64,000 bases of DNA from positions 1 through 64,000 of the forward strand of contig PUHN01000011.1 of NCBI GenBank assembly GCA_002967695.1, given 5' to 3'. The stretch is from Rhodobacteraceae bacterium WD3A24. Lineage in GTDB: Bacteria; Pseudomonadota; Alphaproteobacteria; Rhodobacterales; Rhodobacteraceae. The translations under genes and the position numbers were made by a program. This document shows positions 895 to 36,256 of this stretch, one piece after another. The first letter of the stretch is position 1. Every line of letters starts with the position of its first letter. Below the pieces are notes generated by a model. It made no database searches, was not told the DNA's origin, and worked only from the letters and a program-made list of their open reading frames with translations.

Positions 895-3885
895 ATGAGC
901 GCCGACACGCCCGACTACAAGGACACGCTGTTCCTGCCGAAAACCGATTTCCCGATGCGCGCGGGGCTGCCCAAGCGCGAACCCGCATGGCTGGAGAAGT
1001 GGGAGCGGATCGGCATCTACGACCGCCTGCGCGAACGGGCGGCGACTGGCGAGCGCGCGCCCTTCATCCTCCATGACGGGCCGCCCTATGCCAACGGGCA
1101 CCTGCATATCGGCCACGCGCTCAACAAGATCCTCAAGGACATGGTCGTCCGGTCCCAGCAGGGGATGGGGCGCGATGCGCGCTACGTGCCCGGCTGGGAC
1201 TGCCACGGCCTGCCCATCGAGTGGAAGATCGAGGAGGCCTACCGCGCCAAGGGGCAGGACAAGGACGCCGTGGACGTGGTCGCCTTCCGGCAGGAATGCC
1301 GGAAATTCGCCGAGGGCTGGATCGACGTGCAGCGCGACGAGTTCAAGCGGCTGGGCGTGACCGGCAAGTGGGACGACCCCTACCTGACGATGGACTTCCA
1401 CGCCGAGGCGGTGATCGCCGAGGAGTTCATGAAGTTCCTCATGAACGGCACGCTCTATCAGGGCTCCAAGCCGGTGATGTGGTCGCCCGTGGAGAAGACC
1501 GCGCTGGCCGAGGCCGAGGTCGAGTATCACGACCGCAAGACCGAGGCGATCTGGGTGAAGTTTCCGGTAAGTGTCTGGGCTGCGTCGGACAAAATGCCGC
1601 CTGCTAAAGGAGACGAGCGAGTTGCTCCGCCGGACACTTCTCTATATCGCGAACTACAACAATCCTCCGTCCTCATCTGGACGACCACGCCTTGGACCAT
1701 CCCGCAGAACCGGGCGGTGTGCTTCAATCCCGATATCGCCTACGGTCTCTACGAGGTCACTGAGGCGCCCGAGGGCAACTGGGCGGCGGTAGGCGACCGA
1801 TTTGTGATTGCCGATCGGCTGGCCGAAGAAGTCTTTACCGCAGCGCGGGTGGAGCGTTTCGAAAAGATTGCCCCGGTTACAGCCCACGAACTCCGTGGTC
1901 TGCGGCTCTTGCACCCCTTCCAATCTCTCGACGGAGCGGATGGCGAGTGGGATTTCGATGTGCCCATGCTGCCGGGCGAGCATGTCACCGACGATGCCGG
2001 CACCGGGTTCGTGCACACCGCGCCCAGCCACGGCGACGATGACTACAACATCTATCTGAAGTTCCGGGATCAGTTTCCCGATCTCAAGATGACCCACAAC
2101 ATCCGCGACGACTCGTCGTTCCGCGACGACATCCCGTTCTTCAATGGCCTGCGCGTGATCGAGGAGAACGGCAAGCCCGGCGGCGCCAACAAGGCGGTGA
2201 TCGAAAGGCTGAAAGAGGCCGGCGCGCTGATCGCGCAGCGGCGGCTGACGATCTCGGACGCGCATTCGTGGCGCTCCAAGGCCCCGGTGATCCGGCTGAA
2301 CCGCCCGCAATGGTTCGCCAGCATCGACCGCGAGCTCGATGACGGGCTCGACGGCCCGACGGGGCAGCGTACCATCCGCGCCCGCGCGCTGGAGTCAATC
2401 AAGGAACTCGTAAGCTGGACGCCGCAATCGGGGCGCAACCGGCTGTATTCGATGATCGAGAACCGCCCCGACTGGGTGCTTTCGCGCCAGCGCGCCTGGG
2501 GCGTGCCGCTGACCGTCTTCACGAAGAAGGGCGCCAGGCCCGGCGATGGGGATTTCCTGCTCAAGGATCCCGAGGTCAATCGTCGCGTTGTGGACGCTTT
2601 TGAGGCCGAGGGCGCCGATGCATGGTATGTGCAAGGGTTCAAGGAAAAGGTGCTCGACGGGCTGCACGATCCGGAGGCCTATGATCAGGTTTTTGATATT
2701 CTCGACGTGTGGTTCGACTCGGGCTCGACCCATGCCTTCGTCCTGCGCGACCGGCCCGACGGCACGCCCGACGGGATCGCCGACCTCTATCTGGAAGGGA
2801 CCGACCAGCACCGCGGGTGGTTCCATTCCTCGATGCTGCAGGGCTGCGCGACGAAGGGGCGCGCGCCCTATCGCGGGGTGCTCACGCACGGCTTCACCCT
2901 CGACGAGAAGGGCATGAAGATGTCCAAATCGCTGGGCAACACCGTGGCCCCCGAGGACGTGCAGAACCAGTACGGCGCCGATATCCTGCGGCTGTGGGTG
3001 GCGCAGTCGGATTACACCGGCGATCTGCGGATCGGGCCGGAGATCCTGAAGGGCGTGGCCGACAGCTACCGCAGGCTGCGCAACACGATGCGCTTCATGC
3101 TGGGCAATCTCGCCGGTTTCGACGAGTCCGAGAAGGTCGCGCCCGAGGACATGCCCGAGCTGGACCGCTGGGTGCTGCACCGGCTGGCCGAGCTCGATGC
3201 CGAGTTGAGCACGGGCTACGACGCCTATGATTTCCAGGGCGTCTTCCAGAAGCTGTTCCAGTTCGCCACGGTGGACCTGTCATCGTTCTATTTCGACGTG
3301 CGAAAGGACGCGCTGTATTGCGACGGCGCCGACAGCCTGCGCCGCCGCTCGGCGCGGACGGTGCTCGACCTGCTGTTCCACCGGCTGGCGACATGGCTGG
3401 CCCCGATCCTGGTCTTCACGATGGAGGATGTCTGGGAATCGCGGTTTGGCGACCCGGAGGACTCGGTCCACCTGCACGACATGCCGGCAACGCCGTCAGA
3501 GTGGCGCGATGAGGCGCTGGCGGCGAAATGGGCCGGCGTGCGCCGCGCGCGGCGGGTGGTCACGGCCGCGCTGGAGGTGCAGCGCCGCGACAAGGTGATC
3601 GGGGCGAGCCTGGAGGCGGCACCGGTGGTCCATGTTCGCGATGCCGACGTGCTCGCGGCCCTGCGGACCGTGGAGTTCCCTGACCTGTGCATCGTCTCGG
3701 ACCTGTGGCTGACGGACGACCCCCTTCCCGCCGAGGCGTTCAGACTGCCCGAGGTGGAGGGCGTAGGCGTCGTTTTCGAGCGGGCCGAGGGCGACAAGTG
3801 CCAGCGTTGCTGGAAGATCGCGCCCGACGTGGGCACCCACCGCCATCCGGACGTCTGCGCCCGCTGCAACGCCGTGCTGGGCTGA
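895..3885 (+). CDS. ileS: Isoleucyl-tRNA synthetase
   Basis: This class I aminoacyl-tRNA synthetase charges tRNA-Ile and proofreads valine. The 996 residues carry the HIGH signature at 71-74 (within DGPPYANGHLHIGH), the editing-domain WTTTPW motif near 262, and KMSKS at about 675-679. A C-terminal zinc ribbon has two CxxC pairs (CQRCWK and CARCN). The ATG at 895 gives the expected N-terminus with the FPMRAGLPKREP block. Residues 224-258, between WVKFP and VLIWTTTPW, form a longer linker than I expect for the family. DNA from about 1560 to 1940 is clearly less GC-rich than its flanks, which suggests a recombined patch in the editing domain. The frame is nevertheless intact and all motifs are present, so the enzyme should work. 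Confidence 0.97.
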   Translation: MSADTPDYKDTLFLPKTDFPMRAGLPKREPAWLEKWERIGIYDRLRERAATGERAPFILHDGPPYANGHLHIGHALNKILKDMVVRSQQGMGRDARYVPGWDCHGLPIEWKIEEAYRAKGQDKDAVDVVAFRQECRKFAEGWIDVQRDEFKRLGVTGKWDDPYLTMDFHAEAVIAEEFMKFLMNGTLYQGSKPVMWSPVEKTALAEAEVEYHDRKTEAIWVKFPVSVWAASDKMPPAKGDERVAPPDTSLYRELQQSSVLIWTTTPWTIPQNRAVCFNPDIAYGLYEVTEAPEGNWAAVGDRFVIADRLAEEVFTAARVERFEKIAPVTAHELRGLRLLHPFQSLDGADGEWDFDVPMLPGEHVTDDAGTGFVHTAPSHGDDDYNIYLKFRDQFPDLKMTHNIRDDSSFRDDIPFFNGLRVIEENGKPGGANKAVIERLKEAGALIAQRRLTISDAHSWRSKAPVIRLNRPQWFASIDRELDDGLDGPTGQRTIRARALESIKELVSWTPQSGRNRLYSMIENRPDWVLSRQRAWGVPLTVFTKKGARPGDGDFLLKDPEVNRRVVDAFEAEGADAWYVQGFKEKVLDGLHDPEAYDQVFDILDVWFDSGSTHAFVLRDRPDGTPDGIADLYLEGTDQHRGWFHSSMLQGCATKGRAPYRGVLTHGFTLDEKGMKMSKSLGNTVAPEDVQNQYGADILRLWVAQSDYTGDLRIGPEILKGVADSYRRLRNTMRFMLGNLAGFDESEKVAPEDMPELDRWVLHRLAELDAELSTGYDAYDFQGVFQKLFQFATVDLSSFYFDVRKDALYCDGADSLRRRSARTVLDLLFHRLATWLAPILVFTMEDVWESRFGDPEDSVHLHDMPATPSEWRDEALAAKWAGVRRARRVVTAALEVQRRDKVIGASLEAAPVVHVRDADVLAALRTVEFPDLCIVSDLWLTDDPLPAEAFRLPEVEGVGVVFERAEGDKCQRCWKIAPDVGTHRHPDVCARCNAVLG

Positions 3886-25638: not shown

Positions 25639-25715
25639 GCACCGGTAGCTCAGCTGGATAGAGCACGTGACTACGAATCACGGGGTCGGGGGTTCGAATC
25701 CTCCCCGGTGCGCCA
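25639..25715 (+). tRNA. tRNA-Arg (anticodon ACG)
   Basis: A complete 77-base cloverleaf with encoded CCA. The acceptor arm GCACCGG pairs with CCGGTGC; the anticodon loop CTACGAA gives ACG (25673-25675); the T arm is GGGGGTTCGAATCCTCC. The first anticodon base would be deaminated to inosine to read CGN codons. Its 3' half served as the integration target of the recombinase remnant that follows. Confidence 0.97.
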
Positions 25716-26960
25716 TCTCGCTTTTTGGGGTTGATAATCCTGCTAAAGCCTTGAATGGGAAGGCTAAATCAGGTGTTCGAAGTCCTTCTTTCCGGCAGTA
25801 GGGCAGAGGCTGCGAAAATGCCAGTCTCAGCACGGTCTTTCGGCCTGACAGGTCCACGTTTTTCCAAGGACTTGCCAAAAACCGGAGGGCGTGTTCGCAC
25901 GACTCCTCAAAGGTATGCTTCGGCTTGACGGTTTCAGCCAGTTTTTCTTGCGCCAGCACCTTCTCGCGCTCCAGCTTCGCAACTTTCTTCTCGTAGGCCC
26001 TTACCACAGACGTGTTACCTGTCTCGACGATGCGGTCGAGAAGCTGATCAATCTGCTTGTCCAGCGTCCTGACGCTCGCTTTAAGCTCCGCGACTACCTC
26101 AGAAGCCTGAGCAGCGCGCATGTTCCAGGCATCCTTGGACATGGCCCTCACGAGCCTGAAAAGGCCTCCAGAGGGCTCCGGACGGCTCAGAAGCTCTTCG
26201 AACTCACCTTCGAGCGCTTCGCGCTTGATCGACTTGCGATAACTCTCGCAGCCCATGGTCGGGCAGAGACAGTACGGATATTTCTGGTTCTTACCCTTCG
26301 ACTAGCAGGCCGTCAGCGGCTTGCCGCAGTCATTGCAGAGGACGAATCCCCGCAGCGGGAAATCTTCACTGATATCCTTGCGCGCCGGAGCCTTGGCCGT
26401 GCTTTGAAGCCTGTCCTGTATCTTTTCGCAGGTTTCGAGGCCGATCAGCCCGTCATGCTTGCCCTCACGGAGCCCGACGCCCCAATTCGGAACTTCGACA
26501 TAGCCCGCATAGATCACGCGGGTCAGCGTCTCATAGACGCGCTGTTTCCGAATCTCACCGTTGGGCAGGTCTTTCGGCCATGACGGCTGGCGCTCCAGAA
26601 AGCGCTTCACCTCCACCTGCGTTGCAAAGCGGCCCGATGCGTAGCCTTCAAGGGCCTCTTGCAGGATCGAGGCTTTCGGTTCGTCACGGACAAGAATCTT
26701 GCCGTGGCCGCCGGTCCGATCATAGCGGTAGCCGACAGGAACCTGAAACACCCAATAGCCATTCTGCGCCCGTGCGCGCATCCGGTTGATGGTCTGCTCG
26801 CCATTCTTCTGGCGCTGATGCTGCGAAACAGAGGCAAGCAGGTTCTCGACAAGCTGCGAATCCAAATCCTTGCCGAACTCAGTAGACGGGCTGACCAGCA
26901 CGCCGCCCGCGTTCTCAATCTGCGTGTTTCGCGTGATGTCGGGCAGCGATTTCAGAGGGA
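25678..26960 (-). pseudogene. Decayed large serine recombinase
   Basis: Two in-frame halves of one recombinase. The upstream part (translating from about 26960 down to 26302) has KSLPDITRNTQIENAGG, LVENLLASVSQHQRQKN, the recombinase-domain core QNGYWVFQVPVGYRY and the zinc-ribbon start VLCNDCGKPLTAC. A TAG at 26304-26302 follows exactly where relatives have Trp. After it the same frame resumes as SKGKNQKYPYCLCP and runs through a coiled-coil C-terminus to 25678. The N-terminal resolvase domain with its catalytic Ser (about 90 residues) is missing. So the gene is truncated and interrupted. The GC content is lower than in neighbouring genes. The last 13 codons are antisense to tRNA-Arg. Confidence 0.85.
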
Positions 26961-28677: not shown

Positions 28678-29018
28678 GCGGCGACGAGATCGGCATGGAC
28701 GATTTCCTCAAGGTCGACATCCGCGTGGGCCGCGTCACCCGTGCCGAGCCGTTCCCCGAGGCGCGCAGGCCCGCCTACAAGCTGTGGGTGGATTTCGGCG
28801 CCGAGCTGGGCGAGCGACGCAGCTCGGCCCAGATCACTGCGCATTATGCGCCCGAGGATCTCGTCGGCCGGCAGGTTCTGGCCGTCGTCAACTTCCCGCC
28901 GCGCCAGATCGGGCCGATGCGCTCCGAGGTACTGGTGCTGGGGCTGCCCGATGCAGAGGGGGAAATCGTGCTGATCGGCCCCGACAGCGACGTGCCCGAA
29001 GGGGGGAGGCTCCATTGA
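28674..29018 (+). CDS. CsaA-like tRNA-binding-domain protein
   Basis: A 114-residue homodimeric OB-fold protein of the EMAP-II/tRNA-binding type: FLKVDIRVGRVTRAEPFPEARRP at the N-terminus, SSAQITAHY, and GRQVLAVVNFPPRQIG, the CsaA pattern. Bacillus CsaA has export-chaperone and tRNA-binding activity. It is coupled to proC by an ATGA overlap and followed by a dehydrogenase with an overlapping TTG start. Confidence 0.88.
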   Translation: MSGDEIGMDDFLKVDIRVGRVTRAEPFPEARRPAYKLWVDFGAELGERRSSAQITAHYAPEDLVGRQVLAVVNFPPRQIGPMRSEVLVLGLPDAEGEIVLIGPDSDVPEGGRLH

Positions 29019-29974
29019 CGAAAACCATGCTGATCACCCGCCCGCTGCCCGAGCGCGTTCTCGCCGAGGCGCGCCGCCGTTTCGACGTCACCCTGCGCGA
29101 AAACACGCTGCCGATGTCGCGCGACGAGATGGTCGCGAGCCTGCGCGACCATGATCTGGTGCTGCCCACCATCGGCGACCGCTACAGCGCCGAGATATTC
29201 GCCGCGGTGCCCGATCCGCGGGCGCGGTTGCTGGCGAATTTCGGCGTGGGTTACAACCATATCGACGCCGCCGCCGCGAAGGCCGCGGGGATCGTGGTGA
29301 CGAACACCCCCGGCGCGGTCACCGAGGCCACCGCCGATATCGGGCTGATGCTGATCCTGATGAGCGCGCGCCGCGCCGGCGAGGGCGAACGCCTCGTGCG
29401 CGCGGGTCGGTGGGAGGGCTGGCACCCCACGCAGATGCTGGGGCTGCACCTGGGCGGCAAGACGCTGGGCGTGATCGGCATGGGCCGCATCGGCAAGGCC
29501 GTCGCGCGCCGTGCCCATCTGGGGCTGGGAATGGAGGTGGTGTTCCACAACCGCTCGGCGGTCGAGGATGCCGGCGTGCCCGCCCGCCAGCTGGGCAGCC
29601 TGGCCGAGGTGATGGCCGCCGCCGACGTGGTGGTGCTGACCGTGCCGGCCTCGCCCGAGACCCGTCACCTGATCGGCGCCGACGAGATCGCGGCGATGCA
29701 GCCGCATGCGCGGCTGGTCAATATCTCGCGCGGGGATGTCATCGACGAGGCCGCGCTGATCGAGGCGCTGGAGGCCGGCCGCATCGGCGGCGCCGGGCTC
29801 GATGTCTACGAGCACGAGCCCGAGGTGCCCGCACGGCTGCGCGCGCTCGACAACGCGGTGCTGCTGCCCCATCTGGGCACCGCGGCGCTGGAGGTGCGCG
29901 AGGCGATGGGCTTCATGGCCGTCGAGAACGCCGTGGCCTTCGCCGAGGGGCGCGAGCCGCCGAACGCGGTCTGA
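29015..29974 (+). CDS. D-isomer-specific 2-hydroxyacid dehydrogenase (glycerate/glyoxylate type)
   Basis: An NAD(P)-dependent reductase/dehydrogenase of 319 residues. The Rossmann motif is GMGRIGKAVARRA; the catalytic triad is visible as Arg in NISRGDVID, Glu in YEHEPEVP and His in LLPHLGTA. The substrate-loop block NFGVGYNHID is typical of glyoxylate/hydroxypyruvate reductase and D-glycerate dehydrogenases. I take the TTG at 29015 because GGGGGGAGG lies just ahead and it overlaps the preceding stop; the ATG at 29027 is an alternative four codons later. Exact substrate uncertain. Confidence 0.88.
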   Translation: MTKTMLITRPLPERVLAEARRRFDVTLRENTLPMSRDEMVASLRDHDLVLPTIGDRYSAEIFAAVPDPRARLLANFGVGYNHIDAAAAKAAGIVVTNTPGAVTEATADIGLMLILMSARRAGEGERLVRAGRWEGWHPTQMLGLHLGGKTLGVIGMGRIGKAVARRAHLGLGMEVVFHNRSAVEDAGVPARQLGSLAEVMAAADVVVLTVPASPETRHLIGADEIAAMQPHARLVNISRGDVIDEAALIEALEAGRIGGAGLDVYEHEPEVPARLRALDNAVLLPHLGTAALEVREAMGFMAVENAVAFAEGREPPNAV

Positions 29975-30043
29975 CGTCAGCGCCGGCGGGGCCGAGGGCG
30001 GGCGAAACCTCTGTCGCCTTAAGGGCCGCAGCGGGGTGTCGCC

Positions 30044-30565
30044 TCACTGCGGGCTCTCTTCCAGTTGCCCCTGCGCCCAGCGGGCCAAAAGCCGGTGCCG
30101 GTCGGCGCAGTTTCTGAGCGCTGTGCGGTCTCGGCCCCACAAGATTTCGACCTCGGCCTGTGTGGCATCCTGCCCGCGTTGCCAAGTCTGCGGGTCAGCG
30201 CAGGGCTCGAGAAGTGCTGAAGGCACAGGCACTCTTCCCTCATCAAGGATCATCCGGGAAATCACCTCTGATCCTAGCGAAACATCGCCATCAATCCATG
30301 CCACATATTCGTCGGTCGAAAGCTCTATGCCGGTGGATTGGACGAGCAGGTCTACGCCAAATTTCCTAGCCATGGCCCCTTCTTGTCCCGACGGCTGACT
30401 TGATATTATTGCGAGCGCAAGTTCAGCCGCCTCAACATCCGCCTGCCGATCTGCCTCTGCGAATGAGAAATAGGCGGCGCCGGCCGCTCCTATTGCGGAA
30501 AACAACAACGATAGAGGGATGAGCAGCCACGAGAACCGACCTTTTGCCACCGAAATCTCTTCCAC
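30044..30565 (-). CDS. Membrane-anchored protein with an Rz1-like C-terminal motif
   Basis: A 173-residue protein not recognised as a named family. An N-terminal membrane helix (about 12-36, WLLIPLSLLFSAIGAAGAAY) suggests the rest is periplasmic. The tail from C122 to H157 repeats the arrangement of the neighbouring Rz1-like lipoprotein: Cys-Ala, TQAE, W-x2-DR-x-AL, Cys, then RH, with cysteines 31 residues apart (30 in the lipoprotein). It looks like an o-spanin-type domain placed on an inner-membrane anchor. The start is a GTG with GGGAAGGG 8 bases ahead. It is 69 bases downstream of the Rz1-like gene on the same strand, so probably the last gene of the lysis cassette. GC is lower than in core genes. 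Confidence 0.65.
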   Translation of the reverse strand: MEEISVAKGRFSWLLIPLSLLFSAIGAAGAAYFSFAEADRQADVEAAELALAIISSQPSGQEGAMARKFGVDLLVQSTGIELSTDEYVAWIDGDVSLGSEVISRMILDEGRVPVPSALLEPCADPQTWQRGQDATQAEVEILWGRDRTALRNCADRHRLLARWAQGQLEESPQ

Positions 30566-30634
30566 TGGATTTACCCTTCCCTTCGGTCTAGTGACGACGC
30601 CTCGATCATCGTCAGAGGCTACACGCCCACTGAG

Positions 30635-30925
30635 CTATGTGCTACCGGGCAACCGAAACGCTTGCACTACATCTCGTATCCATGTCGCCGCCAGAGCGTG
30701 CCTTGAACGACACTCGGCCAAGGCGAGTCGATCACTCACCCACGCCCGCTCAGCCTCCGCTTGGGTGAGAGGGCGCTCGGGCAGCGCGGTCGCTTGGGCG
30801 CAGGACTGCATCACCTCCGCATCGGGCGGGCGCAGGTTGACGCGCTCAACGGATGGAGTCGATGCGGCGCACGCTGTCAGCGCCGAAAGAACGGCGATCA
30901 GCGTTGCTATCCTCGCTTGCTTCAT
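30635..30925 (-). CDS. Rz1-like outer-membrane spanin lipoprotein
   Basis: A 96-residue lipoprotein with signal peptide and lipobox LTAC (Cys19). The mature part contains two cysteines (C42, C72) and the block LTQAEAERAWVSDRLALAEC, a pattern I associate with Rz1-type proteins of rhodobacterial phages. AGGAGG lies 7 bases ahead of the ATG at 30925. The gene begins inside the 3' end of the Rz-like gene (80-base overlap, different frame), the nested arrangement characteristic of phage spanin pairs. It would bridge the envelope with the inner-membrane spanin to disrupt the outer membrane during lysis. Confidence 0.72.
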   Translation of the reverse strand: MKQARIATLIAVLSALTACAASTPSVERVNLRPPDAEVMQSCAQATALPERPLTQAEAERAWVSDRLALAECRSRHALAATWIRDVVQAFRLPGST

Positions 30926-31163
30926 CCGAAAGCCTCCTTTCGATCTCGGCGCGCTCACGCTGGGCACGCAGAAACGCCTCGGTGGCTTCCCTTCGTGCCG
31001 CCTCCGCGCGCCGCAGTTGTTCGTTAAGACGCTCCGTTGCCTCCTGAACGCGCTCAGCCTCGGCCTCGACGCCAGCCTTATAAGCGGTGTGGTAGAGCCA
31101 GAGCCCGCCTGCCACCAGCAAGCCCACGGCGCCGGCGGCGAGGTAGGCGCGTAGGCCGAACAT
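30846..31163 (-). CDS. Rz-like inner-membrane spanin
   Basis: A 105-residue protein with one N-terminal membrane helix (5-25, RAYLAAGAVGLLVAGGLWLY) and a long, highly charged coiled coil (30-85, rich in Glu/Arg/Ala: AERVQEATERLNEQLRRAEA). This is the standard i-spanin layout. The ATG overlaps the stop of the upstream muramidase gene (ATGA), and its 3' end overlaps the Rz1-like gene. It acts in the periplasm with the lipoprotein partner at the last step of lysis. The assignment rests on architecture and gene order, not on close sequence identity. Confidence 0.7.
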   Translation of the reverse strand: MFGLRAYLAAGAVGLLVAGGLWLYHTAYKAGVEAEAERVQEATERLNEQLRRAEAARREATEAFLRAQRERAEIERRLSDEASEDSNADRRSFGADSVRRIDSIR

Positions 31164-32164
31164 CACGTCCTCCACCACTTCATCAGCGCCGCGCCGCCGG
31201 CGAGCCCGGCCAGCAGGATCGCCACGCCCCAGGCGAAGGAGGCGATCTCGGGCGGCATGGCCTCGGTGAGTGCCGTCGCCGCCGCGCCCACGGCCGAGGC
31301 CGCCCCGGCGCCGTCCCGAACGCGGCCGATCAGATCGTCTGAAGGTGTTTCCTGCGATGGCGGCTCCGGTGTGTCCTCGCCGCCCGCCTCGCGCAGCGCG
31401 GCCCATGTCCGGGCGCCGGCCACGCCGTCCACCGCCATCCCGTGGCGGTCCTGAAAGCGCCGCAGCGCGGCTTCCGTGCCCGGCCCGAATGCTCCGTCGA
31501 CCTCGATACCCAACGCCTCCTGCAGCCGCCGCACCGCCCGGCCCCGGTCGCCCGTGCGCAGCACCTGGGGCGAGCGCGCGCCGGTCTCGCGCCGATAGGC
31601 CGCCTCCATCCGCCGGGCATAGACCTCGGGCTGGCCCGATCCGTTGTAACGGCGCGCGAACGCCAGCCAGTCGCGGGCGCGCAGGGCGCTGTCGAGGCCC
31701 CATGCCCGGATCAGCGCGACGAAGGCGTCGAGCTGGGCATCGGCGCCGTCGGCCATCGCCCGGACCATGCCGGCCGCGTCCATGTGGCCGGTATCGCGTG
31801 CGTTGAAGCCCATGATCTGCGGCGCGCCCCAGCTCGCGGCGCGAAGCGCGGCCTCGGCGTCGATGCGGTAGGCGGCCATGAACATCCGCTCGCGCGCGGC
31901 CTCGGACAACGCAAGGCTCGCCCGCCACGGCGCCTGCCCGCCGCGCGGCTCGAAGCCGATGCGCGGCCACGCCTCGCGCGGCATGTGGTGCGGCTCGAAA
32001 CGGCGGATCACGTGGCCCCCGTCGTCAAACTTCCGCCCGGCGGCCTCGACCGCCCACACCGCCCGAAGCGCGGCGGGCTCGCAACCCAGCCGGCGGGCAG
32101 CGTCATCGAAGGCGGTCTCGGAGAGGGGGCGGGCCTCGCCCTGCCATGGGGGAATCATCGGCAT
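31163..32164 (-). CDS. N-acetylmuramidase endolysin with peptidoglycan-binding domain and membrane tail
   Basis: A 333-residue cell-wall lysin. Residues about 12-180 form an N-acetylmuramidase (DUF3380-type) domain: LRAVWAVEAAGRKFDDGG, with E40 the likely catalytic Glu, FEPHHM, and SWGAPQIMGFNARDTGH. Residues about 190-250 form a PG_binding_1 domain (GDRGRAVRRLQEALG and VDGAFGPGTEAALRRFQD). A C-terminal hydrophobic helix (about 305-328, FAWGVAILLAGLAGGAALM) precedes KWWRT. No signal peptide is visible. AAGGAG lies 4 bases ahead of the ATG at 32164; a second ATG two codons on is also possible. It leads a spanin pair, so this is a phage or gene-transfer-agent lysis module. Confidence 0.82.
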   Translation of the reverse strand: MPMIPPWQGEARPLSETAFDDAARRLGCEPAALRAVWAVEAAGRKFDDGGHVIRRFEPHHMPREAWPRIGFEPRGGQAPWRASLALSEAARERMFMAAYRIDAEAALRAASWGAPQIMGFNARDTGHMDAAGMVRAMADGADAQLDAFVALIRAWGLDSALRARDWLAFARRYNGSGQPEVYARRMEAAYRRETGARSPQVLRTGDRGRAVRRLQEALGIEVDGAFGPGTEAALRRFQDRHGMAVDGVAGARTWAALREAGGEDTPEPPSQETPSDDLIGRVRDGAGAASAVGAAATALTEAMPPEIASFAWGVAILLAGLAGGAALMKWWRT

Positions 32165-32317
32165 GTCGCTCCTTAGCCATGGGTGGCGCCGCGCCGCCGT
32201 CACGGGGGCGGCTGGCCGACGAGCCTGGCCACGGGGGAGCGAAATCGTCGTTAACCATGCGGTCGCACGCCATTGCGGTTAACCCGATCTTAACCACTGG
32301 TCGGGCAGGCGACGCGC

Positions 32318-32626
32318 ATGAGACGTGCGCTTTCCCCCGTCCTTGCCGCGGCGCTGCTCCTCGCCGGCTGCGCCTCGCCCTCGCCGCGCTTTTTCGGCGC
32401 CGAGCCCGTGCGGGTGACACAGGACGGATTTCGCGTGGCGGTCTATCGCCGGGGGAATGCGGCGCAGGCGATCCGGCTGGATTATGCGCGGCGCGGCAAA
32501 CACGCCAGCGCCCGCGCGGCCCTGCGCGGTGCGATCATCGCCGTGACGGGCTGCGCGCTCGACGAGGGCGGCGCGGAGGGGGACAGCGGCGTGCTCGTCG
32601 CCGAGCTCGATTGCAGCCCGGGCTAG
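32318..32626 (+). CDS. Small lipoprotein of unknown function
   Basis: A 102-residue exported protein with a lipoprotein signal (LAAALLLAGC, lipobox Cys18). The mature part has FRVAVYRRGNAAQAIRLDYARRG and two further cysteines (ITAV-type strand then VTGC, and ELDC near the end) that could form a disulfide. No family recognised. It is divergent from the lysis cassette (154 bases between starts) and converges on a small gene with a 4-base overlap of stops. Confidence 0.7.
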   Translation: MRRALSPVLAAALLLAGCASPSPRFFGAEPVRVTQDGFRVAVYRRGNAAQAIRLDYARRGKHASARAALRGAIIAVTGCALDEGGAEGDSGVLVAELDCSPG

Positions 32627-32898
32627 CCGGAGCCGCGAATCGCCTCGGGATGCGCCTCGATGAAGGCGCGTAGCGTGGTGAAGAGTGCCCGCGCGCGGTC
32701 GGGATCGTCGCGATGGAGAGCATCGCGGATGTCGTCGCAGATGATTTTCTGCACCTGTTGCGGCCCCTTGTGGAGCAGCATGAGATACTCGCCCAAGAGC
32801 GACGCGTCGAATTCGGGCAGGTGCTCGTGCTCGGCGATGGCGGCGATTTCGTCGCGTGTCAGGCAGGTCATGTCCTCGATATCGTCCAGACTGATCAT
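32623..32898 (-). CDS. Conserved small alpha-helical protein
   Basis: A 91-residue, acidic, probably all-helical soluble protein (IEDMTCLTRDEIAAIAEHEHLPEF, LLHKGPQQVQKIICDDIRDAL). It has no membrane segment or known catalytic motif. I recognise it only as a typical short rhodobacterial hypothetical. GGGGAGGCGGC is ahead of the ATG. Its stop overlaps that of the convergent lipoprotein gene. Confidence 0.7.
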   Translation of the reverse strand: MISLDDIEDMTCLTRDEIAAIAEHEHLPEFDASLLGEYLMLLHKGPQQVQKIICDDIRDALHRDDPDRARALFTTLRAFIEAHPEAIRGSG

Positions 32899-33043
32899 TG
32901 CCGCCTCCCCTTATGCCGATTGATGATCATATCATGTTCCACGGGGTGCACTGCGCGAAATCCGGCCGCCTTGCGCCAGATCAAGGCGCGCGGTGGTCGT
33001 GTTGCAGTGTTGTCGGCCAACAAGGATTGAACGGGGTTCGCGA

Positions 33044-33226
33044 ATGATCCGTCTGGCGCTTTTGATCTTCACCATCGCGGCGACCACCCTGATGGGCATG
33101 TTCGTGATCGCGACGCTGTCGATGGGGTATTACGATCTGATTGCAATCATCGCCGCGGCGGCGGCGGGTTTTGCGCTGGCGGTTCCGGTCAGCTATGTGG
33201 TTGCGCGGATGATCGCGCGGCGATGA
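33044..33226 (+). CDS. Small two-helix membrane protein
   Basis: A 60-residue protein made of two hydrophobic helices (about 3-25 and 29-53) with a basic end (ARMIARR). Similar short proteins in roseobacters are often mislabelled CTP synthetase; there is no such domain here. The function is unknown. It converges on the alpha/beta hydrolase gene with a 4-base spacer. Confidence 0.7.
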   Translation: MIRLALLIFTIAATTLMGMFVIATLSMGYYDLIAIIAAAAAGFALAVPVSYVVARMIARR

Positions 33227-33230
33227 CCGC

Positions 33231-34007
33231 TCACCTCTCGTCGCCGGCATCGAGGAAAGTGCGCACGGTTGTCGCGAAATCGGCCGGCTTTTCGGCATGC
33301 AGCCAGTGCCCCGCGCCGAGCAGCTTCGCGAAGCGGGCATTGGGAAACAGCGCCTTGATCGCAGGGCGATGCTTATCGCGGAGGTAGTCCGATTCCGCGC
33401 CTGAAAGAAACAGCAAGGGGCCGTCGAAACGCCCCTCGACCTCGGGCCAGCCGGTAATCTTGTCCATCTGCCGCGCCAGCGCTTCGAGATTGATCCGCCA
33501 GTGCGGAGGGTCGGCCTGCAGGTCGAGCGATTGCAGCAGGAAAGACCGGATCTCGGGGGAGTCGATATGAGCGGCGAGTGCTTCGTCAGCCTGCGCGCGT
33601 GTCCTGAGCCCGTCGAGCCGGAGCGCGCGCATCGCCTCGATGTGGCCCTCGTGGCTGTGGGTATAGGGCACGGGGGCGATATCGGCCACGATCAGCCGGC
33701 GCACCGCGTCGGGGTGGGTGAGCGCGAGCATCATGGCCGCCTTGCCGCCCATGGAATGGCCCAGGACATCGGCCTGCCCGCCCTCTGCATCGATCACCTC
33801 GGCGAGATCCCCGGCCATGGCGGGGTAGTCGTGGCGCTCCGAGCGGAAGCTGAGGCCGTGATTGCGCATGTCCACCGCCAGCACCTGCCGCCCCGTGGCG
33901 AGCCGCTTGGCGATAGCGCCCCAGTTGCGCGCCGAACCGAATAGGCCGTGCGCGATGACGAGCGGCGGGTGCCGGCCCGTGGTGCCGGTGCGGACGAGAT
34001 TGAGCAT
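33231..34007 (-). CDS. Alpha/beta hydrolase (YbfF-like esterase)
   Basis: A 258-residue soluble hydrolase. The oxyanion block is VIAHGLFGSARNW, the nucleophile elbow GHSMGGKAAM, a likely acid in LFLSGAESDYL, and the catalytic His in GAGHWLHAEKP. This is the YbfF/esterase pattern of short-chain acyl esterases. The frame is open to 34085, but the ATG at 34007 (MLNLVRTG) matches the family and I use it. The substrate is not defined. Confidence 0.87.
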   Translation of the reverse strand: MLNLVRTGTTGRHPPLVIAHGLFGSARNWGAIAKRLATGRQVLAVDMRNHGLSFRSERHDYPAMAGDLAEVIDAEGGQADVLGHSMGGKAAMMLALTHPDAVRRLIVADIAPVPYTHSHEGHIEAMRALRLDGLRTRAQADEALAAHIDSPEIRSFLLQSLDLQADPPHWRINLEALARQMDKITGWPEVEGRFDGPLLFLSGAESDYLRDKHRPAIKALFPNARFAKLLGAGHWLHAEKPADFATTVRTFLDAGDER

Positions 34008-34155
34008 GACGGCGGTGATAACGCGCCCGGTCGTCGCGGACCAGCGTAAACTGACGGTCCCCGAGGGCGCCGGCGCATACGTCAAGTGCGCCTGCGCAAA
34101 CGGCTCGACCGGGCCCGCCCCGTCGAGCGCGTCCGCTCGCAGATAGCCGAGCGCG

Positions 34156-34950
34156 TCAGCAGCCCAGCTCGCCGCCCACCTCCAGCGGTTCGAGGATCAT
34201 GGTGCGCGCGCCCTCATACGGCGTCGGCTGCCACTGGCCGCTGGAGCCTTCCCCGACCCAGCCCCAATGGCCGCCGCGGATCGTGCCGGTCCGCGACAGC
34301 ACGTCGAACTCGAACCAGCCGGTGCGCGCGCCGTTGGTGAAGCGGCCGACAAAGCGATTGTCGTCCCACATGCCCGCGATCACGCCCTTGTCGGCGTATT
34401 CGCCCAGCAGGAACAGATCGCGCGAGGTCACATCGAGCATCCCGTGGCGGCTCTCGTAAAGCCCCTCCAGGATCGCCCTGTCCTGCGGCTGTGTGGTCGT
34501 CACGACCCCGCCGCGGGCGAAATTGCGCAGCGTGTCCGGCGCGGGGCCCGCGCGGCGACCGGTCCATTCGCCCGAGGGCGGCTCGCCGTGCCAGGCCCAG
34601 AGCCCGTTGAAGCGCTCGGGGTCGTCGTCGCCGAGGACGAACTGGAAGCTTCCGTTGCGCTGGCCGTTGGTGAAGACGCCCGAGGCGCAACGGCCGTCCT
34701 CGGCCAGACGGCCGACGAGGATGCCACGATCGGCATAGTCGCCGATGACGTAAGTGTAGGGATCGCGGTAGATCTGGTGGAGACGCAACTCGCCGTGGTT
34801 GCTGTCCCACCGGCCCTCGAAGAGCTCGATGACGGGGGGCGGGGCCGGGATGTTGTCGGCTTGCGACGTCGCCGCGGTCGGGCCGAGGGCGCAGAGCGCG
34901 AGCGCGGCGGCGCAGAGGCTTTGTATCGTCGAATGGCTGAAGGGTTGCAT
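34156..34950 (-). CDS. Exported protein with an internal duplication
   Basis: A 264-residue secreted protein with a signal peptide (1 to about 31, ending ATSQA). The mature part holds two copies of one unit: A at about 43-130 (FEGRWDSNHGELRL, IGDYADRGILVGRL, FTNGQRNGSFQF, GLWAWHGEPPSGEW) and B at about 161-240 (LEGLYESRHGMLDV, LGEYADKGVIAGMW, FTNGARTGWFEF, GGHWGWVGEGSSGQW). Each unit is rich in Gly, Trp and aromatic residues and looks like a beta-barrel or beta-sandwich. No family recognised. Start at 34950 (MQPFSHST) has AGAGAG ahead; upstream frame has no signal peptide. Confidence 0.8.
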   Translation of the reverse strand: MQPFSHSTIQSLCAAALALCALGPTAATSQADNIPAPPPVIELFEGRWDSNHGELRLHQIYRDPYTYVIGDYADRGILVGRLAEDGRCASGVFTNGQRNGSFQFVLGDDDPERFNGLWAWHGEPPSGEWTGRRAGPAPDTLRNFARGGVVTTTQPQDRAILEGLYESRHGMLDVTSRDLFLLGEYADKGVIAGMWDDNRFVGRFTNGARTGWFEFDVLSRTGTIRGGHWGWVGEGSSGQWQPTPYEGARTMILEPLEVGGELGC

Positions 34951-35261
34951 CGGCACTCTCTCTGTGACGGGTCGGTTGGGCTCGCAGGCCCTAGCGTGCC
35001 ACACCGGCTTTGGGTGATCCAATAGCGTCGCGGTGTCAGCCGATGTCGCGGACGCGCCGCCATTGTCGCCCGGACCGATGGCGCAACAACGGCGTGCTCC
35101 CGATGGCCGTGGTGGCCGTGGCGCTCAACACCGACGGGCGCTGCAGCGCGGGCGGCGGGCGGTGCCGAGAACGAAAACGGGATCGAAACTCTGCAAACCC
35201 AACCGGCCCGACTGCAGAATCGAGCGAGTGTTGGCACAATATCAGAGTGTTGCGAAAATGG
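34951..35261. other. 311-base intergenic stretch
   Basis: Between the repeat-containing exported protein and tRNA-Arg(TCT). Apart from the expected promoter region of the exported protein I see no coding sequence, repeat or strong hairpin here. Confidence 0.5.
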
Positions 35262-35338
35262 TGGCGACCCCGGCAGGACTCGAACCTGCAGCCATCGACT
35301 TAGAAGGTCGGTGCTCTATCCAGTTGAGCTACGGGGCC
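35262..35338 (-). tRNA. tRNA-Arg (anticodon TCT)
   Basis: A complete 77-base tRNA on the minus strand with encoded CCA. The acceptor GGCCCCG pairs with CGGGGTC (one G-U pair), the D arm is AGCTCAACTGGATAGAGC, the anticodon loop is CTTCTAA (TCT), and the T arm is GCAGGTTCGAGTCCTGC. It reads AGA/AGG codons, which are rare in this GC-rich genome. Confidence 0.97.
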
Positions 35339-35484
35339 GTGACGACGTCCGCCATGCGGCTGGCGAGGTGGTTACGGGAACCGGGATCAGTCTCCTATCC
35401 ATATTGGTCGTCGCCCGAGGCTTGTCGAAAGGGGCCGACACCACGTCGCGGGCCGCGGGCGTGCGAGGCCACGCGAGCGCGGGG

Positions 35485-35796
35485 CTAATGGGTCCAGGTC
35501 GTGCGGCGGTTCGGTGCAAAATTCTCCCCGTAACCGCCGGGGCGGATGTTGGGTGCGCGGCGATGGGGCTTGAGCACGACATGGTCGATGCCGTGCTCGC
35601 GGGCATAGTCTTCGGCGGCCTCGCGCGACTCGAAATGCAGCCTCACCTGGCTGTTCATGTCCGCCGAGCTGGTCCAGCCCATCAGCGGATCCTTCTCGCG
35701 CGGCTGCTCGGGCGAGAACTCGAGAACCCAGTGGCGGGTCTTGCCAATCCCGGACTGCATCGCGTTGCGGGCCGGTTTGTAAATGCGCGCGCGCAT
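35485..35796 (-). CDS. NDUFS4-like complex I accessory subunit
   Basis: A 103-residue protein of the ETC complex I / NDUFS4 (18 kDa) family found in alphaproteobacteria and mitochondria. [38 protein letters not shown] and [14 protein letters not shown] are the characteristic blocks, and it ends with [14 protein letters not shown]. It stabilises the peripheral arm of NADH dehydrogenase in the cytoplasm. The ATG at 35796 fits the family start; the frame is open further upstream. It stands alone, away from any nuo operon in this window. Confidence 0.92.
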
Positions 35797-35977
35797 GGGA
35801 ATCCTCCGGTCTGCCTCTGGGCCCGTTATCGGTGAGCGCCGGGCCGAACGCAAGGGCCGCTCCGGCCGGCCGCTCCGGCCGCCGCTCCGCGCGCGGACCG
35901 GCGCTTACGAAGGCTGTCGGGAACTTCATTTGCCGATCGGCTGGCGCGGCGGTCGTTCGCCCATGTGGCGTGCGCAG

Positions 35978-36256
35978 CTATCCAACCACCCGGAACACCG
36001 GCGTGCCTTCGGGCGCCGTCTCCTCGACCTCGATGCGCTCGACCACCGCTGCAGTGGGCCCCTCATGCATCTGCGATATCAGAGCGTCGATGGCGGCCTC
36101 GGCGCCCTCCAGATGGGCGGTGACCGTCCCGTCGGGCTCGTTCTTGACCCAGCCGGCCACGCCGCCTCGCCGCGCGGCCTCTTCCGTCCAGGCGCGGTAG
36201 GCCACGCCCTGCACCCGGCCCGAGATGCTCACCCGTTTCGCCACCCGCTCGTTCAT
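35978..36256 (-). CDS. acyP: Acylphosphatase
   Basis: It hydrolyses acyl phosphates. In the 92-residue product the phosphate-binding loop is GRVQGVAYRAW, with the catalytic Arg, and the catalytic Asn is in GWVKNEPDGTV. Length and fold are standard. It is divergent from the YjbQ gene, with 93 bases between the starts. Confidence 0.93.
   Translation of the reverse strand: MNERVAKRVSISGRVQGVAYRAWTEEAARRGGVAGWVKNEPDGTVTAHLEGAEAAIDALISQMHEGPTAAVVERIEVEETAPEGTPVFRVVG

What the first reader, a model, noticed from the sequence alone, without database searches (positions are those of the whole stretch)
30044..32164. Stand-alone lysis cassette without phage structural genes
Endolysin, Rz-like and Rz1-like genes and a fourth spanin-like gene are packed on one strand, flanked by ordinary chromosomal genes. 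No capsid, tail, terminase or integrase is near. In Rhodobacterales, gene transfer agents keep lysis genes apart from their structural cluster, so this may be such a module; a prophage remnant is the alternative.
Basis: partly seen in the sequence, partly recalled or inferred. Interest (0 to 1): 0.55.

Follow-up and report, generated by a model that had tools for sequence, protein, structure and literature searches.

The report
Captured phage lysis genes, probably for GTA
This alphaproteobacterium carries a small set of phage cell-bursting genes outside any phage, next to a cell-cycle regulator site, and it probably uses them to release its gene-transfer particles in place of the lysis genes most of its relatives use.

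Summary
Four minus-strand genes at 30044-32164 encode a PF11860 muramidase endolysin with a C-terminal membrane segment, an Rz-like i-spanin, a nested Rz1-like lipoprotein, and a fourth protein joining an inner-membrane anchor to a second o-spanin domain. No holin was recognised. Neighbouring genes look chromosomal.

The genome (genus of Alkalilacustris brevis) has a gene transfer agent (GTA) head-tail cluster on contigs C77 and C115. The usual GTA lysis pair was not found: no GTA_holin_3TM (PF11351; found in 250 of 295 family genomes) and no GH108 hit. PF11860 is over-represented in genomes lacking that holin (10 of 16 PF11860 genomes, against 35 of the other 279). All 10 have the GTA_TIM marker; in 7 a muramidase lies outside any visible prophage.

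A perfect CtrA box (TTAA-N7-TTAA), one of 8 in the genome, lies about 115 bp upstream of the endolysin; three others lie at cckA, chpT and a DivL-like gene.

Best reading: a captured phage lysis cassette under CtrA control that replaced the standard GTA lysis pair. GTA release is inferred. Against it: sister cassettes sit elsewhere, without TTAA upstream. Prophage remnant is the main rival.

The parts
31163..32164 (-). Endolysin: N-acetylmuramidase (PF11860) + peptidoglycan-binding domain (PF01471) + C-terminal transmembrane segment
30846..31163 (-). Rz-like i-spanin: N-terminal membrane segment and charged periplasmic part; start overlaps the endolysin stop by 1 nt
   Evidence: (weak PHROG hits only)
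30635..30925 (-). Rz1-like o-spanin lipoprotein (lipobox LTAC), start nested out of frame in the Rz gene
30044..30565 (-). Fourth gene: inner-membrane anchor domain joined to a second o-spanin (LysC-like) C-terminal domain; the N-terminal half is lower in G+C (54%)
32279..32293 (.). Perfect CtrA box TTAA-N7-TTAA, about 115 bp upstream of the endolysin start codon (about 25 bp from the divergent ORF at 32318)
32251..32254 (.). Extra TTAA half-site in the same intergenic region (3 of the window's 12 TTAA lie in these 153 bp)

Best explanation
A phage lysis cassette was captured by the chromosome, stripped of phage neighbours and placed under the host's CtrA phosphorelay. Its job is most likely to lyse the cells that have made gene transfer agent particles, replacing the GH108 endolysin + 3TM holin pair found in most relatives. 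Proposed mechanism: phosphorylated CtrA (perhaps with GafA) switches on the operon late in GTA production; the membrane-tailed muramidase reaches and cuts peptidoglycan; the i-spanin/o-spanin pair then opens the outer membrane. Shown here: gene content and topology, low dN/dS of the endolysin, no hit for the usual pair, a GTA structural cluster, a perfect CtrA box, and recurrence of such modules in genomes that have the GTA marker but not the usual holin. Inferred: expression, CtrA binding, lysis, GTA release. How the endolysin crosses the inner membrane without a recognised holin is open.
For: GTA cluster in own genome: GTA_TIM 1.3e-148, portal, capsid, protease, terminase, tail completion, tail tube, baseplate hub, NlpC/P60, DUF2460. 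GTA_holin_3TM not found in own; GH108 no hit in own (where no control genome rang either). Holin found in 250 of 295 family genomes; PF11860 in 16 of 295; 10 of those 16 lack the holin against 35 of the other 279 (Fisher p=1e-5). GTA_TIM found in 10 of 10 of those, against 4 of 12 tested genomes lacking both (p=0.0017). The three genomes behind stand-alone loci L052, L054, L058 lack the holin and have GTA_TIM; the four behind loci I labelled prophage (L053, L055, L062, L063) have both. CtrA box: 1 in the window, 0 in 100 shuffles; 8 in 3.36 Mb, three of the other seven at CckA, ChpT and a DivL-like gene. dN/dS of the endolysin 0.25-0.40 in the six pairs of stand-alone copies computed. Published: in R. 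capsulatus, endolysin expression needs both CtrA and GafA (PMC6363796, passages), and the lysis genes rcc00555/6 have putative CtrA half-sites (PMC9638019, passages).
Against: No TTAA in the 400-560 bp upstream of the nine other stand-alone muramidases examined, including the congener's and L052/L054; L058 has none in its 6.2 kb contig; G229's was not examined. So the CtrA box is seen in this species only, and it could serve the divergent ORF at 32318. The locus is not conserved. The N-terminus of the L054 endolysin lies in another frame (2378-2551, then 2523-3467): a broken gene or a MAG error. Low dN/dS may reflect selection in phages before capture, and dS is near 1. Three other genus members, G002-G004 (75-96% complete, 270-480 contigs), lack both the holin and a close endolysin, and two of these have GTA_TIM; four more family genomes have GTA_TIM with neither, so the replacement rule is incomplete. 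GTA_TIM can also lie in other elements (partial copy on C42; several copies in some genomes), so it is a marker, not proof of a GTA. Genomes are related, so the Fisher values overstate independence. One clade of the five stand-alone endolysins is borderline rejected (AU p=0.047), so several captures or exchange with phages. Two of the 10 associated genomes (G154, G198) showed only prophage-like copies in what I viewed, one (G012) is unclear.
Confidence: 0.55

Rival explanations
1. Prophage remnant: an old prophage decayed and only its lysis genes survive by chance, not yet lost, with no function for the host or the GTA.
For: Many close relatives are in phages and prophages (55% L064; up to 67% over part of the protein in L059). 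G+C drops towards the spanin end (0.586 for the fourth gene against 0.752 for the endolysin and 0.68 for the window). The fourth gene looks chimeric. tRNA-Arg genes at 25639 and 35262, with unconfirmed recombinase-like ORFs at 25678-26901. A truncated GTA-like tail and portal remnant exists elsewhere in the genome on C42. The stand-alone endolysin of L054 looks frameshifted.
Against: The window's four frames are open, and dN/dS of the endolysin is 0.25-0.40 between stand-alone copies. Stand-alone copies with spanins recur in other species with no phage genes in view (contigs or stretches of 7-19 kb), two of them beside rsmD. Rare CtrA box upstream. No direct repeat of 15 nt or more brackets the cassette in 29000-36000.
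Confidence: 0.24
2. Host-controlled lysis for another purpose (type 10 secretion of large proteins, or release of DNA or vesicles from a few cells), under CtrA but not tied to the GTA.
For: Lysis-cassette-dependent protein release in Yersinia entomophaga is in print (PMC10847048 and PMC10101115, seen as search listing and abstract start only). The CtrA box says cell-cycle or phosphorelay control, not GTA as such.
Against: No obvious cargo gene beside the cassette (by eye). Association with loss of the GTA holin while the GTA marker is retained.
Confidence: 0.15
3. The cassette serves another prophage or phage in the same cell (for instance the C42 element) rather than the GTA.
For: C42 holds portal-like, GTA_TIM-like and spanin-like ORFs (by eye except GTA_TIM).
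Against: The C42 GTA_TIM match is partial (1-172 of 299) and I saw no capsid or terminase in the 19 kb viewed; the only PF04860 portal match of the genome is in the GTA cluster.
Confidence: 0.05

Closest known systems
RcGTA lysis genes rcc00555/rcc00556 of Rhodobacter capsulatus (endolysin and holin; that they are GH108 and PF11351 is recalled, by analogy with the relatives' loci)
   Same: Lysis genes kept away from the GTA structural cluster (PMC6209664, PMC8601537, passages); CtrA sites upstream; expected role in particle release
   Different: Different endolysin family (PF11860, not GH108), no PF11351 holin found, spanins present, not beside ccmE
Lambda-type endolysin-Rz-Rz1 phage lysis cassettes
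   Same: Endolysin then i-spanin with nested o-spanin lipoprotein; topology as expected
   Different: No recognised holin, no phage neighbours, extra fourth gene with an o-spanin domain on an inner-membrane anchor
Rhodobacteraceae prophage and viral lysis modules (L053, L055-L057, L059, L060, L064)
   Same: Homologous endolysin, 55-67% identity
   Different: Most lie among phage tail genes (by eye; L053 and L055 at contig ends); 12 of 32 such phage or prophage loci have a one-TM ORF directly upstream, 0 of 5 stand-alone cassettes do; the four host genomes tested keep PF11351
LypABC, the GTA release system of Caulobacter crescentus (PMC13236601)
   Same: A lineage-specific alternative to the classical holin-endolysin GTA lysis route
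   Different: LypABC is CARD-NLR-like and not a phage lysis cassette (passages and Discussion read)

Membership tests
RcGTA-type GTA lysis module | GH108 endolysin (PF05838) | tested here: not met
   Cassette endolysin is PF11860; own-genome PF05838 search no hit, no control rang; four relatives' loci have GH108
RcGTA-type GTA lysis module | GTA_holin_3TM (PF11351) beside the endolysin | tested here: not met
   Not found in own genome in two searches; the same search finds it in 250 of 295 relatives
RcGTA-type GTA lysis module | GTA structural cluster in the same genome, at another locus | tested here: met
   C77 and C115; the join between the two contigs was not seen
RcGTA-type GTA lysis module | CtrA site(s) upstream | tested here: met
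   Perfect TTAA-N7-TTAA at 32279-32293; consensus recalled; binding not tested
RcGTA-type GTA lysis module | GafA-dependent transcription | not tested
   No GafA homologue was sought and no usable consensus was found in the passages read
RcGTA-type GTA lysis module | Needed for GTA release | not testable with these tools
   Needs a mutant and a transfer assay
Phage endolysin-spanin lysis cassette | Endolysin, TM i-spanin and lipobox o-spanin nested in it | tested here: met
   profile support for the i-spanin is weak
Phage endolysin-spanin lysis cassette | Holin | tested here: inconclusive
   None recognised in the cassette; the endolysin's own C-terminal TM segment could act in its place (inference)
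Prophage remnant | Other phage genes or attachment repeats beside the lysis genes | tested here: inconclusive
   None seen (by eye), but recombinase-like ORFs at 25678-26901 are unresolved
Type 10 secretion system | Lysis cassette with a large secreted cargo | not tested
   No cargo noted by eye in the window; no search made

The most novel reading that the evidence does not exclude
GTA lysis is a swappable module: in several Rhodobacteraceae lineages the ancestral GH108/3TM-holin pair was lost and replaced, more than once, by stand-alone phage lysis genes (PF11860 muramidase with spanins, or with a PHROG-1544 membrane protein), and in this species the new cassette was wired into the CtrA phosphorelay. 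The fourth gene would be a new, inner-membrane-anchored o-spanin that modulates the spanin step.
Probability: 0.43. Interest if true: 0.68.

Novelty: new variant of a known kind. Interest (0 to 1): 0.55.

Why it matters
If true, the costly final step of GTA production, bursting the producer cell, was not kept from the ancestral phage but re-acquired from other phages and re-wired to host control. That argues that release is under selection in these lineages, which bears on the debate on why GTAs persist despite the cost of lysis (PMC6209664, passages), and it gives a marker (holin lost, GTA kept, captured cassette) for finding other release systems. It parallels the report that Caulobacter uses an unrelated release system (PMC13236601).

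Tried and rejected
Rejected: that this is the RcGTA-type lysis pair itself (different families). Rejected: conservation of one locus. One vertical lineage for all stand-alone cassettes is disfavoured (AU p=0.047, borderline; window + G001 alone p=0.20), though L052, L054 and L058 form a supported clade (99/95). CtrA boxes as a general rule for such cassettes: not found elsewhere. Terminase PF03354 did not ring in own genome; the GTA terminase was found as Terminase_6 instead. Viral scans with the single window proteins found nothing; the two-row alignment worked. The fourth protein had one weak phage hit, to its spanin part, and none in plasmids. Its structure prediction was submitted but had not finished when last asked, so no model is used. 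Shared promoter motifs between the GTA and the cassette were not worked out; I only printed the regions. Promoter/terminator scan: nothing above chance. One query (L044:1300-1830) was placed wrongly and says nothing.

Dropped rows and choices: for the GTA_TIM test I took 12 of the 35 genomes lacking both PF11860 and PF11351 (those named's capped list of genomes without a match, leaving out G037 and G126 at 74% and 76% completeness); the six genomes with both families were not tested for GTA_TIM. That G154, G198, G229 and G279 lack PF11351 is read from their absence's list of 250 positives. The viral matches L091 and L093 and L061 (the same locus as G001) were left out of the tree. L042 was fetched but not viewed; four of the six loci L044-L049 were viewed. 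Contexts 'stand-alone' or 'prophage' were judged by eye from a crude ORF caller, on contigs or stretches as short as 6-7 kb (L054, L058). Gene names not backed by a Pfam/NCBIfam call (tgt, rsmD, pheT, mltG, fabF, SulP, atp, sdh, argG, DivL, RegB and the like) are my reading of the printed sequences; the CtrA consensus is recalled.
Full report
What is there. The first, 31163-32164, is a phage-type endolysin: N-acetylmuramidase PF11860 (1.2e-35) and a peptidoglycan-binding domain, similar in sequence to solved endolysins such as 7rum (5.4e-28), with a hydrophobic C-terminal segment. Its stop codon overlaps the start of an Rz-like i-spanin, 30846-31163, inside which an Rz1-like lipoprotein, 30635-30925, begins out of frame. 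Profile support for the i-spanin is weak (best spanin PHROG 0.0019, after a 'hol-like chemotaxis' PHROG at 0.00098) and rests mainly on topology and position; for the o-spanin it is better (4e-6). The fourth ORF, 30044-30565, has an N-terminal membrane anchor, no lipobox, and a C-terminal domain of the o-spanin type. That domain is 31/52 identical to the o-spanin of the congener G001, while the cassette's own lipoprotein matches the same G001 o-spanin at 26/83. So the cassette holds two o-spanin domains, one on a lipoprotein and one on an inner-membrane anchor. No holin was recognised.

Surroundings. By eye, the ORFs of 13-48 kb are chromosomal; no 15-nt direct repeat brackets the cassette within 29000-36000. 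tRNA-Arg genes lie at 25639 and 35262. Two ORFs at 25678-26901 beside the first look to me like serine recombinase fragments, but the searches made did not confirm it.

GTA in the same genome. G000 has a GTA structural cluster: on contig C77 a terminase, portal, prohead protease, capsid, tail completion and tail tube gene, and on contig C115 baseplate and NlpC/P60 genes plus the GTA TIM-barrel protein (1.3e-148). The join between the contigs was not seen.

The usual GTA lysis pair is missing. In four relatives viewed, GTA_holin_3TM sits beside a GH108 endolysin next to ccmE (GH108 by Pfam in 4 of 4, ccmE by Pfam in 2 of 2 scanned, by eye in the other two). PF11351 is found in 250 of 295 family genomes but not in G000, G001 or the other three genus members held. 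A GH108 search of G000 found nothing, with the caveat that no control genome rang.

Association. PF11860 occurs in 16 of 295 family genomes at E<=1e-8. Ten of the 16 lack PF11351, against 35 of the other 279 (p=1e-5). All 10 have GTA_TIM; of 12 tested genomes with neither PF11860 nor PF11351, 4 have it. In the 10, I saw a muramidase outside a prophage in 7 (G000, G001, G008, G052 twice, G087, G229, G279), only prophage-like copies in 2 (G154, G198; 2 of 6 copies of G154 viewed) and an unclear contig end in 1 (G012). Of the 6 PF11860 genomes that keep PF11351, G157 has one stand-alone and one prophage copy, G096 a prophage copy, and the other four are unclear, IS-rich or on AT-rich contigs that look foreign. 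In G052 (one of its two copies), G229 and G279 the muramidase is followed by a membrane protein; those of G052 and G279 match PHROG 1544, that of G229 is similar by eye, and none of the three matches PF11351. This is a second module type. These genomes are related and GTA_TIM is a marker that other elements can carry, so the p-values are guides only.

Stand-alone relatives of this very cassette. A scan of GTDB genomes with the two Alkalilacustris endolysins gave 12 loci. One, L061, is G001 again; three are stand-alone in Rhodobacteraceae MAGs. L052 and L054 both lie directly upstream of a gene I read as rsmD, with homologous i- and o-spanins; L058 lies elsewhere, and I saw no spanins after it. 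In L054 the start of the endolysin lies in another frame, a broken gene or a MAG error. Their genomes lack PF11351 and have GTA_TIM. The genomes behind L053, L055, L062 and L063, which I labelled prophage, have both. Endolysin dN/dS is 0.25-0.40 in the six stand-alone pairs computed (0.26 L052/L054, 0.40 window/G001; dS near 1). This is purifying selection, though part of it may have acted in phages.

Control. TTAA-N7-TTAA occurs once in the window (0 in 100 shuffles) and 8 times in the 3.36 Mb genome (the pattern read backwards: 3). The window site is about 115 bp upstream of the endolysin and 25 bp from a divergent ORF at 32318. Of the other seven, three lie at CckA (NCBIfam 6.9e-48; the site overlaps the 5' end of the longest ORF), ChpT (6.8e-32; also divergent from an acetyltransferase gene) and a DivL-like multi-PAS protein (name recalled), i.e. 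the CtrA phosphorelay itself; the NCBIfam scores are below the curated cut-offs. The remaining four are near an alcohol dehydrogenase, an outer-membrane protein, an integrase and a resolvase gene. If 8 sites fell at random, the chance of one in these 153 bp is 3.6e-4, optimistic because such sites favour intergenic DNA. Three of the 12 TTAA of the window lie in these 153 bp. In R. capsulatus, CtrA and GafA are both needed for endolysin expression (PMC6363796, passages), and putative CtrA half-sites precede the lysis genes (PMC9638019, passages). Against generality, no TTAA lies upstream of the nine other stand-alone muramidases examined or in the L058 contig.

Evolution. In a tree of 41 endolysins (38 different), the window and G001 branch near Rhodobacteraceae prophages and L052/L054/L058, which form a supported clade. 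One clade of all five is borderline rejected (p=0.047). Several captures, or exchange with phages, fit best.

Verdict. The cassette is best read as a captured, host-regulated lysis module that stands in for the standard GTA lysis pair. The GTA link is circumstantial but comes from four directions: GTA present, standard pair not found, family-wide association, CtrA box. It fails the membership test for the RcGTA-type lysis module by gene family; it may still work like it. I found no report of such a replacement in the listings, which cover open-licence PMC papers only; PMC13236601 reports a different release system in Caulobacter.

Noticed in passing
window 30044-30565: Fourth gene joins an inner-membrane anchor domain (54% G+C) to an o-spanin domain; no full-length relative found in phages, viral contigs or plasmids. 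Function of an inner-membrane-anchored o-spanin domain is unexplained.
   Followed up: partly
window 25678-26901: Two minus-strand ORFs beside tRNA-Arg(acg) look like fragments of a serine recombinase; not confirmed by Pfam, plasmid or PDB searches.
   Followed up: partly
L025 (own genome contig C42, about 66.8-71 kb): A second, truncated GTA-like element with portal-like, spanin-like, baseplate-like and partial GTA_TIM ORFs, close to repeated ORFs (by eye except GTA_TIM).
   Followed up: no
L032, L037 (G157, G052); L034, L035 (G008, G087): Stand-alone PF11860 muramidases lie beside ATP synthase genes in two different genera, and beside or near pheT in two others (gene names by eye): recurrent landing sites.
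   Followed up: no
L044, L045, L046, L048: The standard GTA lysis pair (GH108 + GTA_holin_3TM) sits next to ccmE in all four loci viewed, an address that makes its loss easy to score.
   Followed up: partly
G023, G058, G098, G105: Four family genomes have the GTA TIM-barrel gene but no PF11351 or PF11860 match; their GTA lysis genes are unknown.
   Followed up: no
L054 2378-3467: The endolysin N-terminus is in a different frame from the rest: frameshift or MAG sequencing error.
   Followed up: no
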